From: Schizosaccharomyces osmophilus
Taxonomy: Eukaryota; Ascomycota; Schizosaccharomycetes; Schizosaccharomycetales; Schizosaccharomycetaceae
Assembly: GCF_027921745.1 (NCBI RefSeq)
Contig: NC_079238.1
Location: 2,666,001 to 2,730,000 of the forward strand
DNA: 64,000 nt
Reading direction: 5' to 3'
Shown: positions 47,755-63,335 of the stretch, piece by piece
How the letters are laid out: the number at the start of each line of letters is the position of its first letter
Numbering within the stretch: the stretch's first letter is position 1
Made by a program: the position numbers and the translations under genes
Notes under the pieces: generated by a model
The model's database searches: none
Told to the model about the DNA's origin: nothing
Seen by the model: only the letters and a program-made list of their open reading frames with translations

Positions 47755-47874
47755 GTCTACGGCCACACCTAGGCGAAAACACCAGTTCCCGTCCGATCAC
47801 TGCAGTTAAGCGTCTGAGGGTCTCGTTAGTACTATGGTTGGAGACAACATGGGAATCCGGGATGCTGTAGGCTT
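47755..47874 (+). rRNA. 5S ribosomal RNA, copy 1
   Basis: About 119-120 nt beginning GTCTACGGCCACACCTAGGC and ending with GATGCTGTAGGCTT plus a short T-run (Pol III stop). It nearly matches the fission yeast 5S sequence I know. The internal control region AGCGTCTGAGGGTCTCG is present. Fission yeasts carry 5S genes dispersed outside the rDNA. It lies 340 bp from the 3' end of a wtf-like gene. Confidence 0.96.
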
Positions 47875-48214: not shown

Positions 48215-49054
48215 TCAATTCCCACCGCTTTCAACATCCCTAGACTGACCCGGTTCCTGGCGTAACCCTGGAGATTGCTCAGTATGTTCAGAGGTATGTT
48301 CAGAGGACGGTTGTTTAAAAGTATCATCACTACGATCGTTGAACTGGTTTTCAGGCTCTGGTGGCAAGCTGTTTAATGGGATACTATTATCATCCGTCAA
48401 GTCTTTCTATCCGATGACATCCTGAAGCCTAGAGCACTAATAATCACAGAAAAAATCCCAGAAACAACTAGAGGAATCAATATAACGATTGAATCCACCA
48501 ACACTAAAAGTACCCCATTAGTAAACTTATCAAATTAAAATCCCACCATTCCACTTACGTGAAAAAACAAATAAGAACATATAGAAAGTCATGACGACAA
48601 GAACAGCTGCCACAGTAGCTTGAAACCATGTCCATACAGATTCTTTCATCGGTTCCTTTATAAAGGGGACAAGGTATTTGTATGAAAACCAAAAGTTCAA
48701 TACGATTGAACCAATAAAGCACCAACCAAGCCGAAGAGCTTCATTCTCTTGTCTTCGTTGTGCTTCAGGAATTCTCGCAATTTCTGCCGGCCAGAAAATC
48801 AACCACAATAATGCCGTCAAGACATTTCGTAAAAGAATAAAGAATCCGCTTCCTCCTGTCATGTTGGTAGACGCTTCTTGATGTCTGTTTTCTGAGTACC
48901 GAGGTGCATGACCTTTTTCCAAGTCGTCTAGATGAGAATTCAAGATTTCATTGTACCGTGGCAGTTCACCGTCAAACGTTGCAAGAGTGCCCAAGCGAGG
49001 AACGTCAGCTGAATCAGCATCATTTAGCTTTTTGTATTTGTTTTTTTCAATCAT
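48215..49054 (-). other. wtf-like multi-pass membrane protein gene, integrity unresolved
   Basis: A minus-strand gene region starting at the ATG at 49054. The leading exon runs to about 48558 and encodes a polar head followed by at least three membrane segments. The head has KNKYKKLNDAD, resembling the MKNKY start of wtf proteins, and a DLEKG motif flanked by degenerate PY-type sequences (LPRYNE, APRYSEN). Membrane segments include FFILLRNVLTALLWLIFWPA and the region around FIGSIVLNFWFSYKYLVPFI. A canonical donor and branch/acceptor pair follows, leading to another hydrophobic exon, and a polar Ser/Glu/Pro-rich stretch lies at the 3' end. I cannot fit the parts into one continuous model. The copy may be slightly decayed (about one break) or carry an intron I failed to see. 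The family is wtf or a wtf-associated membrane family. Confidence 0.5.
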
Positions 49055-49990: not shown

Positions 49991-51107
49991 ATGAAAAACA
50001 AATATACTCCTATTTCGGATTCTGATGACTCTTCCAAAACGCTCAATGATGAAAAGGTAGATAGTCAGTCGTCTCCTTCTGATGGTACGCCTCCTCCGTA
50101 TTCAGGTAAGATTAGTTGAAATGGAAAGGAAAGGTTTATTCTTTGTGTTCTTGTTTGAACGGTTCATGATGGAAGAATCATGCTTGTTTATTTATTTGAT
50201 GGGTTTGAAACTAATAACCTTGTCGATAAGTGTCAACAAACAGGGCGAATACCTCTATCCTTTTCACAAACAACGAAAGAACAGTTACTAATACATCCAT
50301 TAGCTTCAACCAAATTTATTGATCTCGAAATGGCTCCTGAAACAGAAGAAAGTTCTAAGAAGAAAAGATATCTGACGCCTCGTGAATTAGCAATTGTTTT
50401 TGCTATTTTTATTGTATATAATGTATGCTTGATTATTGCGAGGGTCATTCTTCTTGTTTATGAAATATGGTTTAATCAGCTTGCCGTTTGGGTACTTTTT
50501 GGCGTTTGGTGCGCTCTATTTCTGTCATTGACAATTGGTAAGAAACTAATTTCAGGATTTTTAATGACTCACTAACTATTAGTAATAACTCAAATGCCTA
50601 AAGAATGGTTCACGCAAGCTGGAAGAGCAACCAAAAACGTATTGTCAGCTATGTGTATCTCAGTATTATGTGTGTGTTTTCTCGATGTCCTCGGTTTCAC
50701 TGCGTATTATGCTGCAAAGAAGTTCACAGGATTTGAAAAGATAAACAACAATTTTTTCTATGCTGTTTGTTTTGTTAACTTTGTCTTGTTTCTTTATTTG
50801 ACGAGTATGTCATACACCCGCGAAATATTCTAACTCTTCTAGTGAATGCAAATGCGCGTGAACGACTTAGATTAGTAGTCGTCGATATGGGAAACGGCAT
50901 AGGAAGCGGCATAAATGGCTTAGGAAACGGAATAGGAAGCGGCATAGGAAATGCTGTGGATCATATGTTCGGTATGTACACTTTGCAAATGCTTCCTTTC
51001 GTAACATCGTACTAACCTATTTAGAAGGGACAAATCGAAGAGATGAAGCACCTCGTAACGAAGAAATTGAACTTCAACCTCTTGCTGAGCAAAGGGCTGA
51101 AGTTTGA
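49991..51107 (+). CDS. wtf-family gene (candidate poison-antidote meiotic driver), five exons
   Basis: I read five exons: 49991-50105, 50244-50537, 50583-50804, 50843-50971 and 51025-51107. Junctions are all in phase (each phase 1), donors GTAAG/GTATGT, branches ACTAAC or TCTAAC, and the product is 280 residues. Exon 1 starts MKNKYTPISDSDDSS and ends with a PPPYS motif, a PY motif of the kind bound by Rsp5-type ubiquitin ligases and typical of wtf antidotes. Exons 2-3 encode about four membrane spans. Exon 4 has glycine-rich repeats (GNGIGSG). The tail is polar and acidic. wtf genes kill spores that do not inherit them: a short poison isoform and a longer antidote come from alternative starts around intron 1. 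This copy looks whole and shows the matching layout. Activity is inference. Confidence 0.85.
50232..50242 (+). promoter_or_regulatory. Near-FLEX (Mei4) site in wtf intron 1
   Basis: GTCAACAAACA differs at one position from the Mei4 FLEX core GTAAACAAACA and still fits the general forkhead core RYMAAYA. It sits at the 3' end of intron 1, overlapping the acceptor. In S. pombe wtf genes a FLEX site in intron 1 drives the meiotic poison transcript. An in-frame ATG follows at 50330 in exon 2; another in-frame ATG lies upstream at 50180 inside the intron. Confidence 0.5.
50891..50956 (+). repeat. Two 33-bp repeats in wtf exon 4
   Basis: Two tandem 33-bp units, each beginning GGAAACGG and encoding GNGIGSGI-type glycine-rich sequence. 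The units are near-identical over their first 24 bp and differ at the end. S. pombe wtf genes have variable repeats in a late exon that affect poison/antidote matching. Confidence 0.8.
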
Positions 51108-51815: not shown

Positions 51816-51935
51816 GTCTACGGCCACACCTAGGCGAAAACACCAGTTCCCGTCCGATCACTGCAGTTAAGCGTCTGAGGGTCTCGTTAGTACTATGGTT
51901 GGAGACAACATGGGAATCCGGGATGCTGTAGGCTT
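51816..51935 (+). rRNA. 5S ribosomal RNA, copy 2
   Basis: Identical to copy 1 over its length by eye, same strand, with a T-run terminator. A TATA-like element lies about 30 bp upstream, a known feature of fission yeast 5S promoters. It lies between the 3' ends of the wtf gene and the 269-residue membrane gene. Confidence 0.96.
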
Positions 51936-52306: not shown

Positions 52307-53116
52307 CTAAGTTTGCGTAGTAGGATAGATATCCGTCGGTGGAGGAGCCAGTGCATTGTCTCTTTGCTGATAGCTGGGAAGCGTAGGCGCTCTCGTGTGA
52401 TCTGTTGAGCTAACAAAATCTAAACCAAGACAGGCTAAAAGAGTGGAATACAATACATAGCCCACACCGCACATTATGGTACCTACACAGTACATCAAGG
52501 TACCTACGACCATACCAATGATTTTTCCAATAGCACTGAAAAGGAATGGAAGGACACAACCCATCAAGATGACCACATAAAGCAATCCTCTAACAGTTCC
52601 GAGAATAAATGAATGAAGGCCTAATATTTTTGTCAGTAAACAATCAAATGTATCGATTAATTGGATATGGTTGAACTCACAAAAAAAAGCAGCTACAAAT
52701 ATTATGAATATCGCAACATGAATTATTAGAGGAGCCAAGGGCCAATTGCCCCAATCTTTAAAGCCATCGACTAGAATAGTATATGTTCGGAAGTAGCAAG
52801 ATATTGCACAGACACACACCAAAGAGGGAATAATTGTAGATAACAATCGTTGCGACTTCTCTTTAAGGAATACATTATCGGGAAATTCCCCATTTAGGAA
52901 TTGTAAAGCTTCACGTTTCCTTTCTTCGAAAAAGGAAGGAAAATCGCTTAATTGATTCATAAATATGTCTTTCTTCTCTTTGGCTTTCAAAGAACCTGAA
53001 TTGGGTGATTTATTTGTGTCCTGTTGTGTGTACAAAGGAAGTCCCTTCTCGAGATCATCATCATAAACATTGGCATGGTATGCAAGAGGATTGCTTGATA
53101 TATTAATCTTTGACAT
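52307..53116 (-). CDS. DLEKG-motif multi-pass membrane protein (wtf-associated / UPF0494-like)
   Basis: 269 residues in a single exon, from the ATG at 53116. The polar head carries DDDLEKGLPLYTQQD, recalling the DLEKGPLPEY motif of wtf proteins. About four or five membrane segments follow: STIIPSLVCVCAISCYF, LAPLIIHVAIFIIFVAAFF, then LLYVVILMGCVLPFLFSAIG and a glycine-spaced stretch (GMVVGTLMYCVGTIMCGVGY). The tail has LPSYQQRD and APPPTDIYP, PY-like. I do not recognise it with certainty. It may belong to the fission yeast UPF0494 membrane family, members of which have been described beside wtf genes (wag), or be a divergent intronless wtf. It looks whole. A palindromic FLEX site about 280 bp upstream suggests meiotic expression. 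Confidence 0.65.
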   Translation of the reverse strand: MSKINISSNPLAYHANVYDDDLEKGLPLYTQQDTNKSPNSGSLKAKEKKDIFMNQLSDFPSFFEERKREALQFLNGEFPDNVFLKEKSQRLLSTIIPSLVCVCAISCYFRTYTILVDGFKDWGNWPLAPLIIHVAIFIIFVAAFFCEFNHIQLIDTFDCLLTKILGLHSFILGTVRGLLYVVILMGCVLPFLFSAIGKIIGMVVGTLMYCVGTIMCGVGYVLYSTLLACLGLDFVSSTDHTRAPTLPSYQQRDNALAPPPTDIYPTTQT

Positions 53117-54388
53117 TATTGTAAAATTTGAGCGAGTCTACCGCTTCAAGTGCAATAGACTAGAGCAACTGTGAATTTCTCCTGCTCGCAAGCTTCCCAA
53201 ATCACGATAAAACCAAATATCGAATGAAAACACACCCAAATAGAATTCAATTCTATTATATCATTCCAGCAAGTTAAAAGAAACCCAAAATGAATCGAAT
53301 TGGCAAAGAAATGAAGAAAGAGGAAGTTTGCTCCTGTCAAGAAATTTCGCATCGCTTACGGTGTTGGGTTACAATGACAAGTGACGCTTGCGATTTCTGG
53401 TTTGTTTACAAAAATGTAAACAAACCAGGTTTTCAGCAATTATAGCATTCATTGAATTTCAAAATGGATGAAAGTCTTTGGATAATTCTTAATTGTAAAT
53501 CATTTTACATTCTTCAACTACTGAAATTACGTTATCACAAAAGTGCTTAGGCAGATAAAGAGCATTAGCTAAAGTTGTTAATTTACAGATTTTATGATTT
53601 TTTTTTTTTTTTTCTTCTTAGACGAGAAACTTGTAAATGGTGACGAATTGCTAATTGGGGAGTAATACAGGAAAGCAAGTAGATTCTACTTTTTCATCAA
53701 AAAAAAACAAAAGATACAATAAAAAAGCTCAATTTGGATGATACTAAAGGAGAAAAACTGCCTCAAAACGCGATTCTTTCGCTTTCCTTGCGCAGCTCTT
53801 TGATCATAGTTAAGTCACAAATAGCCAAGTAACACAAGTCTTTTGTTTACACTTAATGTAACAGAAAACGATGATTATTTTACGAGGTTATTATAACAAT
53901 GGTTATTGTATTGTAATTGTTCCGCAATAATAGAAAATTTCAGCAGTAGTAGGGCAAATTATATTATAGTCTCTACATGTCTATTCATTGTCTTGTTGGG
54001 AAAAACGAACATAGGGCTTTTAGTCGTCGTTAAAAAATACTCTGCATGAAATAAAAACATTTATCTGTCTTCGATTCATTCTGACATGACTTATAAAACC
54101 CATTTACTGATATAGCTTCTCTGAAACAACTAGACAATTCTTCGCCTTTATTTACTGACCTACTAGAAAGAACTATTCGGGCTCTTTGCTTCCCTTTTTG
54201 GCTTATGTGAATATAAATTTTGACGCTCGGCATTGAGTTATGATAAATTTCCCAAGCCAGCTTTATGGATTCCTATTCTCTAACTATTCATCGACATTTA
54301 CCCTCATATACAAATCATGTTTTCCTTCATCATGTATCAACTATTTTATATAGTATATATAGATATAAAAACCGAGCATTATCAACAA
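53117..54388. other. Region between membrane gene and tRNA-Leu
   Basis: About 1.27 kb. It holds the 32-bp FLEX palindrome (53397-53428), an A/T-rich stretch with a long T-run near 53595, another forkhead core (TTTGTTTACACTT near 53840) and TATA-like sequence before the tRNA. The frame 53146-53352 (minus) lacks family resemblance. Confidence 0.5.
53397..53428. promoter_or_regulatory. Perfect palindrome of two FLEX (Mei4) sites
   Basis: A 14-bp arm CTGGTTTGTTTACA, a 4-nt AAAA spacer, and the exact inverse arm. Each strand therefore shows GTAAACAAAC, the core of the FLEX element bound by the meiotic forkhead factor Mei4. It lies 281-312 bp upstream of the 269-residue membrane gene, and no other gene starts nearby. 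Confidence 0.7.
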
Positions 54389-54488
54389 GCGGCGATGCCC
54401 GAGTGGTCTAAGGGGGCAGATTTAAGTGGCATTTAAGCCGTGAACCCTGCTGTTGTAAAACGCGTGAGTTCGAACCTCACTCGCCGCA
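54389..54488 (+). tRNA. tRNA-Leu with intron (anticodon probably TAA)
   Basis: 100 nt. Acceptor stem GCGGCGA pairs with TCGCCGC, discriminator A. A-box TGCCCGAGTGGTC and B-box GAGTTCGAACC are clear, with a class II variable arm. The sequence GATTTAAG at the anticodon, followed by about 18 extra bases, matches the intron position of budding yeast tRNA-Leu(CAA). By that alignment the anticodon is TAA. Upstream sequence is TATA-rich (TATAGTATATATAG). Confidence 0.88.
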
Positions 54489-60991: not shown

Positions 60992-62929
60992 TTAACCTTT
61001 AGAAAATCCTTCAGAAGTAGAGCGATAAATTTTGACTGGTAATGAAGGATCGTAAACCATGAGGTTTGAATAAGTTTGGCAACTAATTGATCTTGATGTT
61101 TGAAAATCTGGTGCACCGTGATTTCGACGAACCGGTCTAGGGATCAAGCTATGATTAATCCCGATAATTTTAAGACCCTGACTCGCAGCATTTTTAGGGG
61201 CATCGACAACCGTGTCAAAGTCAGAGGGAAGTTTAAAGCTGCTGTCAGGTGTCAAGTTTAATGACAGCGGAGCTTTATAAAACTTATTGTCATGGTAAAG
61301 AGTGGCCCTGGGCGAGTTCATTTCTTCGCTAGCTTTGTTTTCATCTCTTTTAGGCACACGATTTACAATTTGCTGGGATTTAGCAGAAAGAGTTTCAATT
61401 GGAATTCGAGGTGTTACCTGCAAGTTAGATTGAGATGCTTTTTGAGGCTTGAAATGAGAAGACTGTTGTTCATAAGATGGCAATAAGCAATTTTCAACAA
61501 GTTCACAAGAAATGGTTTCAGGCTGTTTTACTTTAGATGGGCTTTCATCCGAATTCATCGTTTCACTCATTAAAGGATTAGACATTTGGTTATCTTTCTC
61601 ATCACTATCAAGTTTAATTGGTTTTCGAGGGAGATGAGGTGGAGAAGCTTCAGGTAATGCATTCTTAACTGCATTTGTTAAAGTATACAAGTTCTTTTTG
61701 AACCAGCTGACTCTTTTTTCTTGCCTTTTTTCAGCGTTAGGTTTTACAGCTATATCATCCTTGGAATTCCCAGGTTTATTGGCTTTTCCTGATACTAGCT
61801 TTGCTTCTTGACCATTTGGAAGCTCAGGGGATTTGGGGAAGTATCTTTCTTTGCATGATATGGCAGAGGGTCGGATAAATGGATCCCATGCTAAGAGTTG
61901 TGTAATCATTTCAGTATACTTGTCATCACAGGTAGCTGGAAGTAATTTCCTTATAGGATAGGGTCTTGTGGAAGAAAAGGAGAATCCAAGTTTGACGGCC
62001 AAATCTTTAGCAGAGGGCCAGTAGTGCAGTTTGTCTTTGACATCCAAGAGAGGATTTCCAAGTATTTCACAAATTCTATTTAACTGATCTGTCTCATTTC
62101 TTCCAGGGAATAGAGGCTTTAAGGTAAAAACTTCAAAAGTGATACAACCGAAAGCATACATATCAACTGCTTTACCATAATCTTTTGCTCTAAGCAAAAG
62201 CTCTGGCGCACGATACCAACGAGTTGATACATACTCAGTAAGTGGATCATTTGAAGTAGAAGATCGGGCTAATCCAAAGTCTGCAATTTTGACACTATAC
62301 CTAGAAAATACTGGTCGGTCTGTGAGCTTCTTGACCAAAATGTTTTCAGGCTTCACGTCTCTGTGCATAAACCCATGAGTATGTATATGTTCAATTCCTC
62401 GAATGATCTGATTTAGAATATGACAAGCCGTATACTTGGTAAATGGCTTTCCTTGTCTTCGCTTCAAAATTTGATATAGGTTGGCTTCCATACATTCCAT
62501 TACTAAATAAATGTTTTTGTTGGGGTCCATAAAAGTTTCCAACAAGTCGATCAAACCTGGATGTTTCGATATTTGTTGAAGTACCTATAGTCATTAGTAA
62601 CAATTTTTTTTTTTTTTTTTTTTGAAATGCTATAAATAATTTAAAAAATTTGAACAATCTTACCAATGACTCTCGAAGCTTCAGTAGCTCTTGCTTTGGT
62701 TTTGGTTTACTGCTAGTCTTTAACTTCTTGACAGCCACCTAGAAGATGTTAGTTAAATCAATTGACCCTTTTTTTGCCATACTGCTTGCTCATGGCCTTG
62801 CTTTCCTTTGCGCTTTGCCAAATACACAGTACCAAAGCTGCCATCTCCTAGCTTATGCTTCACATAATACCGATCTTCAAAACGGAATTCCTTCAAATCT
62901 AAGGCTGCAAAAGGAATCTCTTTGGTCAT
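60992..62929 (-). CDS. mde3: Mde3-type meiotic protein kinase (Ime2/MAK/RCK family), three exons
   Basis: Three exons: 62929-62783, 62738-62664 and 62584-60992, all in phase, giving 604 residues. The start MTKEIPFAALDLKEFRFEDR leads into the glycine loop GDGSFGTVYLAKR. The catalytic lysine is in VAVKKLK at the head of exon 2. The last exon carries HRDVKPEN, DFGLARS and the activation segment TEYVSTRWYRAPE, a T-x-Y type loop of the RCK/MAK/Ime2 group. The C-terminal half is Pro/Ser/Lys-rich. In S. pombe, Mde3 and Pit1 are Ime2-like kinases acting in meiosis and spore formation; mde means Mei4-dependent expression. The promoter here has a perfect FLEX site. Intron 2 contains a T/A-run of about 22. 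Pit1 is the alternative assignment. Confidence 0.9.
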
Positions 62930-63335
62930 ATCCTAGTTTGAAAGAAAAGGAAGCTGGTTTGCTATGGTTAAGAGTCCTTTTCCTATATGTTTATTTTGTT
63001 TGTTTACATTTTCGCAACTTCCTACTAACGAATCCAACGATTTCATTTGTTAGGGTTATAAAAAAGAAAAACATAGAAGTAATATTAAAAGCTTTAAATT
63101 ACTTTTGTATTTGTCAATTCATCAGAAGAAACATTTAAGTCTAACACTCAGAATAAGCGGTCTTTGTACTATATTTTTTAACTATAACTCTTTTTAGAAT
63201 TGCCTTTTAAGTTCTAATAAGTCTTCTATGTATACCGTATATGAAAGAAAGAATCTATTACTGCTAATAAAACTTCGCTACATAACTCTTCCTTTACCAC
63301 AACCCGAGCAAGGAAAATTGGGATAAAACGACAAT
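62930..63335. other. Divergent promoter region, mde3 / sah1
   Basis: About 405 bp with the FLEX site of mde3 (62995-63007). Overlapping plus-strand frames are not supported as genes. Confidence 0.55.
62995..63007 (-). promoter_or_regulatory. FLEX element (Mei4 site) of mde3
   Basis: The minus strand reads GTAAACAAACAAA, the full FLEX consensus as I know it, 66 bp upstream of the mde3 ATG. Consistent with the Mei4 dependence that gave the S. pombe gene its name. Confidence 0.75.

What the first reader, a model, noticed from the sequence alone, without database searches (positions are those of the whole stretch)
49991..51107. Apparently whole wtf-type gene with the poison-antidote layout
The sequence shows five exons with in-phase junctions, an MKNKY start, a PPPYS motif ending exon 1, membrane-spanning middle exons and a glycine repeat exon. 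Established: wtf genes of Schizosaccharomyces are selfish meiotic drivers that encode a poison and an antidote from alternative transcripts. Inference: this copy may be an active driver in a non-pombe species. Each junction being phase 1 means exons could be gained or lost without breaking frame, which may help such genes diversify.
Basis: partly seen in the sequence, partly recalled or inferred. Interest (0 to 1): 0.85.

Follow-up and report, generated by a model that had tools for sequence, protein, structure and literature searches.

The report
Ordinary wtf spore-killer gene, fission yeast
The sequence holds a whole-looking five-exon gene of the known wtf family of fission-yeast spore-killer genes, which make a poison and its antidote from one gene; it fits the published non-pombe pattern closely and is most likely an ordinary, already catalogued kind of gene.

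Summary
Five exons (49991-50105, 50304-50537, 50583-50804, 50843-50971, 51025-51107, +) splice into a 260-aa frame through four canonical phase-1 introns. A rule-based splice search returned only this model in the window and none in 30 shuffles. It matches published non-pombe wtf genes: five exons, poison ATG at base 27 of exon 2 (as stated for S. octosporus wtf25), a single PPxY ending exon 1, four hydrophobic segments, an exon-4 repeat with a 21-bp period that is the window's best match to the printed wtf25 repeat, an imperfect FLEX site in intron 1, and a 5S, divergent wag-like gene, wtf, 5S layout. Against: no Pfam WTF hit, no match to the S. pombe wtf4 repeat, and no wtf protein on hand to align, so membership rests on anatomy, repeat DNA and layout. 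Earlier work lists 81 intact wtf genes in three non-pombe species and shows drive in S. octosporus, so this is an ordinary member of a known family, probably catalogued. Whether this copy drives is untested. Side-observation: the divergent neighbour and the gene beyond the second 5S also carry Leu-Pro-x-Tyr motifs.

The parts
49991..50105 (+). exon 1: antidote-only N-terminal tail (MKNKY..., single PPxY motif PPPY at aa 34-37, 4 Lys); phase 1 end
   Evidence: [quoted passage not shown]
50106..50303 (+). intron 1 (198 bp), expected to hold the poison promoter; GTAAG donor, CTAAT branch, AG
   Evidence: promoter role inferred from the family
50232..50242 (+). FLEX-like (Mei4-type) site GTCAACAAACA, 10 of 11 to GTAAACAAACA
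   Evidence: consensus from PMC9562144
50304..50537 (+). exon 2, hydrophobic segment 1 and most of segment 2; phase 1 end
50330..50332 (+). predicted poison start ATG, in frame, 27th base of exon 2, first ATG after the FLEX-like site, context GAAATGG; product 213 aa
   Evidence: same position stated for S. octosporus wtf25
50583..50804 (+). exon 3, hydrophobic segments 3 and 4; phase 1 end
50843..50971 (+). exon 4 with glycine/isoleucine repeat (50890-50951; periods 12, 21 and 33 bp); phase 1 end
   Evidence: best window match to the printed wtf25 exon 4 repeat
51025..51107 (+). exon 5, charged C-terminal tail and stop TGA
47755..47873 (+). upstream 5S rRNA gene
   Evidence: Rfam RF00001, 103.8 bits
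48559..49054 (-). exon 1 of the divergent gene in the wag position; MIEKNKY start, LPRY motif; ends at phase 1 before a 55-bp intron
   Evidence: layout of wag genes in PMC9562144
48215..48503 (-). second exon of the wag-like gene; its frame ends at a stop and a coding-like hydrophilic frame follows in another phase, so this copy is probably broken or has an unseen junction
51816..51934 (+). downstream 5S rRNA gene; with about 30 bp of 3' flank it matches the upstream one at 93.5% over 153 aligned positions

Best explanation
This is a structurally intact wtf gene of a non-pombe Schizosaccharomyces, probably S. octosporus or S. osmophilus (S. cryophilus and S. lindneri not excluded), laid out to code for both a poison and an antidote. 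The long transcript, from upstream of exon 1, should encode a 260-aa antidote whose exon-1 tail carries one PPxY motif; this should recruit Rsp5/NEDD4-type ubiquitin ligases and send the protein to the endosome and vacuole. A short meiotic transcript from within intron 1, favoured by the FLEX-like site, should start at the ATG at base 27 of exon 2 and give a 213-aa poison without that tail. Both share the four hydrophobic segments and the exon-4 repeat, should co-assemble and be removed together in spores that inherit the gene, while spores without it keep the poison. Shown here: gene structure, motifs, locus layout. Inferred from the family: transcripts, toxicity, rescue, drive. The confidence given is for family membership and the dual-coding layout; for active drive by this copy I would say about 0.3-0.4.
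For: Only splice model of its kind in the window and none in 30 shuffles. 4 of 4 introns phase 1, as are 5 of 5 boundaries of wtf4. Poison ATG at exon-2 base 27 as in wtf25. wtf25 exon 1 works out at 109 bp, also phase 1, from printed coordinates. Single PPxY in the tail. Exon 4 is the window's best local match to the printed wtf25 repeat, score 27 against 21 for the next place outside it, and it shows the family's 21-bp period (2.7 copies, 76% matches). FLEX-like site. 5S on both sides and a divergent gene in the wag position. Codon usage.
Against: No Pfam WTF match for the whole protein or its two halves at E<=10. No wtf protein was on hand for direct comparison. The printed S. pombe wtf4 repeat does not pick exon 4: score 13 there, other places in the window reach 20. 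The FLEX site has one mismatch; 14 sites with at most one mismatch occur in the window against 2.3 expected, so at that density one in intron 1 (+ strand) has a chance of about 0.02 by my arithmetic. The exon-4 repeat is imperfect: periods of 12 bp (5.4 copies, 69% matches) and 33 bp (20 of 21) fit as well as 21 bp, and a search for [ILVM][GN][NS]xxxG found one copy. No transcript or cross data.
Confidence: 0.93

Rival explanations
1. A sub-reading of the best explanation: it is a wtf gene that now acts only as an antidote or is silent. The long transcript is made, but the poison transcript is too weak or the poison not toxic, so it does not drive but may protect against closely related copies.
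For: FLEX site is one base off the consensus. 17 of 48 intact S. octosporus wtf genes had no detected short transcript, and 0 of 31 intact S. osmophilus genes has a confident FLEX hit. S. osmophilus wtf19 poison was not toxic in S. cerevisiae. Of 7 S. octosporus genes deleted, chosen preferentially for poison expression, 3 drove clearly and 2 perhaps weakly.
Against: The poison ATG is intact, in frame, and the first ATG after the FLEX-like site. 14 S. octosporus genes without a confident FLEX hit still make the short transcript.
Confidence: 0.5
2. It is a membrane-protein gene of another fission-yeast multicopy family (such as wag or DUF999-type genes) that only resembles wtf by five exons and a PY motif.
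For: No Pfam WTF hit. Both neighbouring genes also encode proteins with hydrophobic segments and Leu-Pro-x-Tyr motifs, so a PY motif alone is not specific.
Against: The exact position of the internal ATG, exon phases, exon-4 repeat DNA, intron-1 motif and 5S flanks agree together. No full-length similarity to either neighbour: 110 of 1000 and 206 of 1000 shuffles score as high.
Confidence: 0.03
3. Chance splice model on noncoding DNA.
For: None beyond the lack of a protein-family hit and one antisense frame scoring higher in exon 5.
Against: 0 of 30 shuffles gave any such model; the codon score of the spliced frame is in the range of the window's long ORFs.
Confidence: 0.01

Closest known systems
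S. octosporus wtf25 (SOCG_04480), proven poison-antidote meiotic driver (PMC9562144, PMC11892871)
   Same: Five exons, poison ATG at exon-2 base 27, phase-1 end of exon 1 (worked out), a PY motif, similar exon-4 repeat DNA, flanking 5S rDNA genes.
   Different: Exon 1 is 115 bp here against 109 bp worked out for wtf25. wtf25 with both 5S genes fits in a 2.5-kb fragment, while here the stretch with both 5S genes is 4.2 kb and holds a wag-like gene, so this is not wtf25 itself. Drive untested here.
wag-associated wtf genes of S. octosporus and S. osmophilus (5S-wag-wtf units, PMC9562144)
   Same: Divergent gene between the upstream 5S and the wtf; 5S genes in tandem with the wtf.
   Different: That the neighbour is a wag gene rests on position and orientation only.
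S. pombe wtf drivers (wtf4, cw9)
   Same: Antidote-specific exon-1 tail with PY motifs, poison start near exon 2, FLEX in intron 1 of verified drivers, all wtf4 boundaries phase 1.
   Different: Mostly flanked by Tf LTRs; wtf4 has 6 exons and its poison reads 21 bp of intron 1; cw9 has two PY motifs in the antidote-specific region. No Pfam or repeat similarity found here.

Membership tests
wtf gene family | Sequence homology to Wtf proteins | tested here: inconclusive
   No Pfam WTF hit at E<=10; that the library holds a WTF model is recalled. Non-pombe members were found by PSI-BLAST, and the closest S. pombe-S. octosporus pair shares 16% identity. Exon-4 DNA is the best match in the window to the printed wtf25 repeat, but not to the wtf4 repeat.
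wtf gene family | Five-exon structure with matching phases | tested here: met
   5 exons, 4 of 4 introns phase 1; wtf4 5 of 5 phase 1 from printed coordinates.
[quoted passage not shown]
   ATG at 50330 = base 27 of exon 2; wtf25 same.
wtf gene family | FLEX (Mei4) motif in intron 1 | tested here: inconclusive
   GTCAACAAACA, 10 of 11; the published matrix was not available. Not universal: confident hits in 20 of 48, 0 of 31 and 1 of 2 intact genes of S. octosporus, S. osmophilus and S. cryophilus.
wtf gene family | PY motif (L/P-P-x-Y) in the antidote tail, single in non-pombe species | tested here: met
   PPPY at aa 34-37, the only one in the protein; PMC10721834 passages.
wtf gene family | Four to eight predicted transmembrane segments | tested here: met
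   4 by Kyte-Doolittle, 19-aa window, cut-off 1.6; the published range rests on TMHMM, which was not run.
wtf gene family | 7-aa (21-bp) repeat in exon 4, reported for genes of S. octosporus and S. osmophilus | tested here: met
   Tandem Repeats Finder: 50892-50951, period 21, 2.7 copies, 76% matches; also period 12 and offset 33. Strict IGNxxxG-type pattern matched once. Best window match to the printed wtf25 repeat.
wtf gene family (non-pombe) | Association with dispersed 5S rDNA and often a divergent wag gene | tested here: met
   5S at 47755-47873 and 51816-51934, both +; divergent gene 49054-48215 between the first 5S and the wtf. Identity of that gene as wag rests on position and orientation only.
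wtf meiotic driver | Two transcript isoforms in meiosis | not testable with these tools
   No RNA data.
wtf meiotic driver | Biased transmission in heterozygous crosses | not testable with these tools
   Needs crosses.

The most novel reading that the evidence does not exclude
The divergent wag-like gene is not a passive neighbour but a diverged, PY-tagged relative or partner of the wtf gene: it begins with a wtf-like tail (KNKY...), carries a Leu-Pro-Arg-Tyr motif and hydrophobic segments, and could act as a trafficking partner, or be a remnant suppressor, that travels with the driver between 5S genes.
Probability: 0.08. Interest if true: 0.55.

Novelty: already known. Interest (0 to 1): 0.25.

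Why it matters
If it drives, it adds one more copy to a family whose drive mechanism is reported to have lasted over 100 million years (PMC9562144 abstract). The locus is a tidy example of how such genes sit between 5S genes. The more open point is the wag-like neighbour: one search of the held library for wag genes with wtf returned a single paper, which calls the family uncharacterised.

Tried and rejected
Pfam, NCBIfam and PDB gave no meaningful relative of the wtf protein; the weak hits (such as ABC_export, XK-related, DUF6594, ABCB6) are below cut-off or at E 0.3 and worse in PDB, and most lie on the hydrophobic part. Scans of viral contigs and of bacterial/archaeal genomes found no relative: 8 and 45 stretches matched a pattern, none was confirmed by tblastn. 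No second wtf copy in the window by tblastn (other hits have E 1.2 or worse). Homology between the N-terminal tails of wtf, the wag-like gene and the 52307-53116 gene was tested: wtf-wag 61, wtf-52307 gene 2794 and wag-52307 gene 131 of 5000 shuffles reach the observed score, so the first and third are suggestive at best before correction for three comparisons, and the second is nothing. Full-length, the same three pairs gave 110, 206 and 45 of 1000. Structure prediction was not tried, because the spliced protein is not readable in one frame of the window and no alignment was available. The species could not be settled: the exon-4 repeat and the 5S/wag context favour S. octosporus or S. osmophilus, but a legend in PMC11892871 implies repeats also in the S. 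cryophilus gene of its panel, and no reference sequence was at hand.

Full report
OBSERVATION. Reading 49991-51107 on the + strand gives five exons (115, 234, 222, 129, 83 bp) that splice into a 260-aa open frame. Introns are 198, 45, 38 and 53 bp, with donors GTAAG, GTAAG, GTATG, GTATG, branch sites CTAAT, CTAAC, CTAAC, CTAAC and AG acceptors; all four interrupt codons at phase 1. A mechanical search for such genes (ATG, four introns with these sites, stop, >=200 aa, span up to about 2.5 kb) found one model on the two strands of the 64-kb window, exactly this one, and none in 30 dinucleotide shuffles, with or without the phase condition. The rules were chosen with this gene in view, so the search shows rarity, not an unbiased discovery. 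The codon score in frame is in the range of the window's long ORFs: 0.19 bits per codon against 0.129-0.288 in the 15 ORFs that trained it; in exon 5 an antisense frame scores higher.

PROTEIN. Residues 1-38 (exon 1) are a charged tail that ends in PPPYS; residues 34-37 are the only L/P-P-x-Y motif. Four hydrophobic segments lie at 72-90, 100-118, 136-154 and 173-191. Exon 4 holds a Gly/Ile repeat at 50890-50951 that can be read with a 21-bp period (2.7 copies, 76% matches), a 12-bp period (5.4 copies, 69%) or a 33-bp offset (20 of 21 bases). Exon 5 is a charged tail. The ATG at 50330 is in frame, is the first ATG after the FLEX-like site at 50232-50242, and would give a 213-aa product without the PPxY.

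COMPARISON WITH THE FAMILY. PMC9562144 (sections 5-13, 28, 32, 38 and part 1 of 58 read; passages) reports 48 + 35, 31 + 11 and 2 + 3 predicted genes and pseudogenes in S. octosporus, S. osmophilus and S. cryophilus. Their structure is like that of five-exon S. pombe wtf genes; [quoted passage not shown] 72 of 83, 33 of 42 and 2 of 5 are associated with 5S genes; often a divergent wag gene lies between the upstream 5S and the wtf; and a 7-aa repeat occurs in exon 4 of genes from S. octosporus and S. osmophilus. PMC10085805 (passages only) reports 41 of 42 S. osmophilus wtf genes shared between two strains and one lost or gained, probably by recombination between flanking 5S genes. PMC11892871 (section 23 read; passages) states that the wtf25 poison begins at the 27th base of exon 2; here it is also base 27. 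From its printed coordinates (repeat at 505-534 of the poison and 640-669 of the antidote) wtf25 exon 1 is 109 bp, phase 1. The printed wtf4 exon boundaries (136 for exon 1; 283, 541, 733, 796 in the poison frame) all leave remainder 1, so all-phase-1 looks like a family trait. The printed wtf25 repeat finds exon 4 as its best place in the window (27, next 21 outside it), while the S. pombe wtf4 repeat does not (13 there, 20 elsewhere). PMC10721834 (passages) states that antidotes of the intact genes of the three species carry a single conserved PY motif, and shows for S. pombe cw9 that PY-dependent ubiquitination routes the antidote to the endosome. PMC13160552 was seen as outline and abstract only.

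LOCUS. Two 5S genes on the + strand at 47755-47873 and 51816-51934 match at 93.5% over 153 aligned positions, including about 30 bp of 3' flank. Between the first 5S and the wtf lies a divergent gene, exon 49054-48559 and a second exon from 48503 after a 55-bp phase-1 intron, in the wag position. The frame of its second exon ends at a stop after SSDRKT, and a coding-like hydrophilic frame (0.169 bits per codon) follows in another phase: either this copy is broken, as some published wag genes are, or a junction was missed. By recall, the genes on the left of the window are collinear with an S. pombe chromosome II region (calcineurin, spe2-like, cut14, rsv1-like, rhomboid, lcf2-like, rps23); this was not tested.

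MECHANISM. Shown: gene structure, motifs and locus. Inferred: long transcript = antidote; short intron-1 transcript = poison; ubiquitin-dependent sorting of the antidote with the poison bound to it; death of spores lacking the gene. Whether this copy drives is open: 31 of 48 intact S. octosporus genes make a detectable short transcript, and of 7 genes deleted, picked preferentially for poison expression, 3 drove and 2 may drive weakly. I put the chance that this copy is an active driver in its own species at about 0.3-0.4.

AGAINST. No Pfam WTF hit; no direct protein comparison possible; no match to the S. pombe repeat; FLEX off by one base, with a chance of about 0.02 of such a site in intron 1 given 14 sites of at most one mismatch in the window. 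That the Pfam library holds a WTF model is recalled, not shown by a call.

VERDICT. A genuine-looking, structurally intact wtf gene, an ordinary member of a known family and probably one already listed, though the lists themselves could not be opened. Interest is low for the gene itself, a little higher for the wag-like neighbour.

Noticed in passing
window 48215-49054 (-): Divergent wag-like gene begins MIEKNKY (wtf begins MKNKY) and carries LPRY and DDLEKG; the tail match to wtf is reached by 61 of 5000 shuffles. Its 3' end looks frame-broken.
   Followed up: partly
window 52307-53116 (-): 269-aa protein with hydrophobic segments just beyond the second 5S, weak DUF999 match (E 0.03, 14.8 bits against a cut-off of 25), with LPLY and LPSY motifs and a DDLEKG stretch shared with the wag-like gene (131 of 5000 shuffles as good).
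   Followed up: partly
window 53397-53428: Inverted pair of FLEX-like sites (GTAAACAAACC on both strands) about 0.3 kb upstream of the 52307-53116 gene, which might mean meiotic control.
   Followed up: no
window 62997-63007 (-): The only exact FLEX site in the window lies about 0.5 kb upstream of a protein-kinase ORF (60992-62530, -; the ORF may lack its first exon), by recall like meiotic mde3.
   Followed up: no
window 54389-54488 (+): Likely intron-containing tRNA gene: 41.2 bits against a gathering score of 29 in a permissive Rfam scan, not listed by ARAGORN in bacterial mode or by the default Rfam scan.
   Followed up: partly
window 1-64000: FLEX sites with at most one mismatch are about six times more common than in shuffles (14 against a mean of 2.28).
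   Followed up: no
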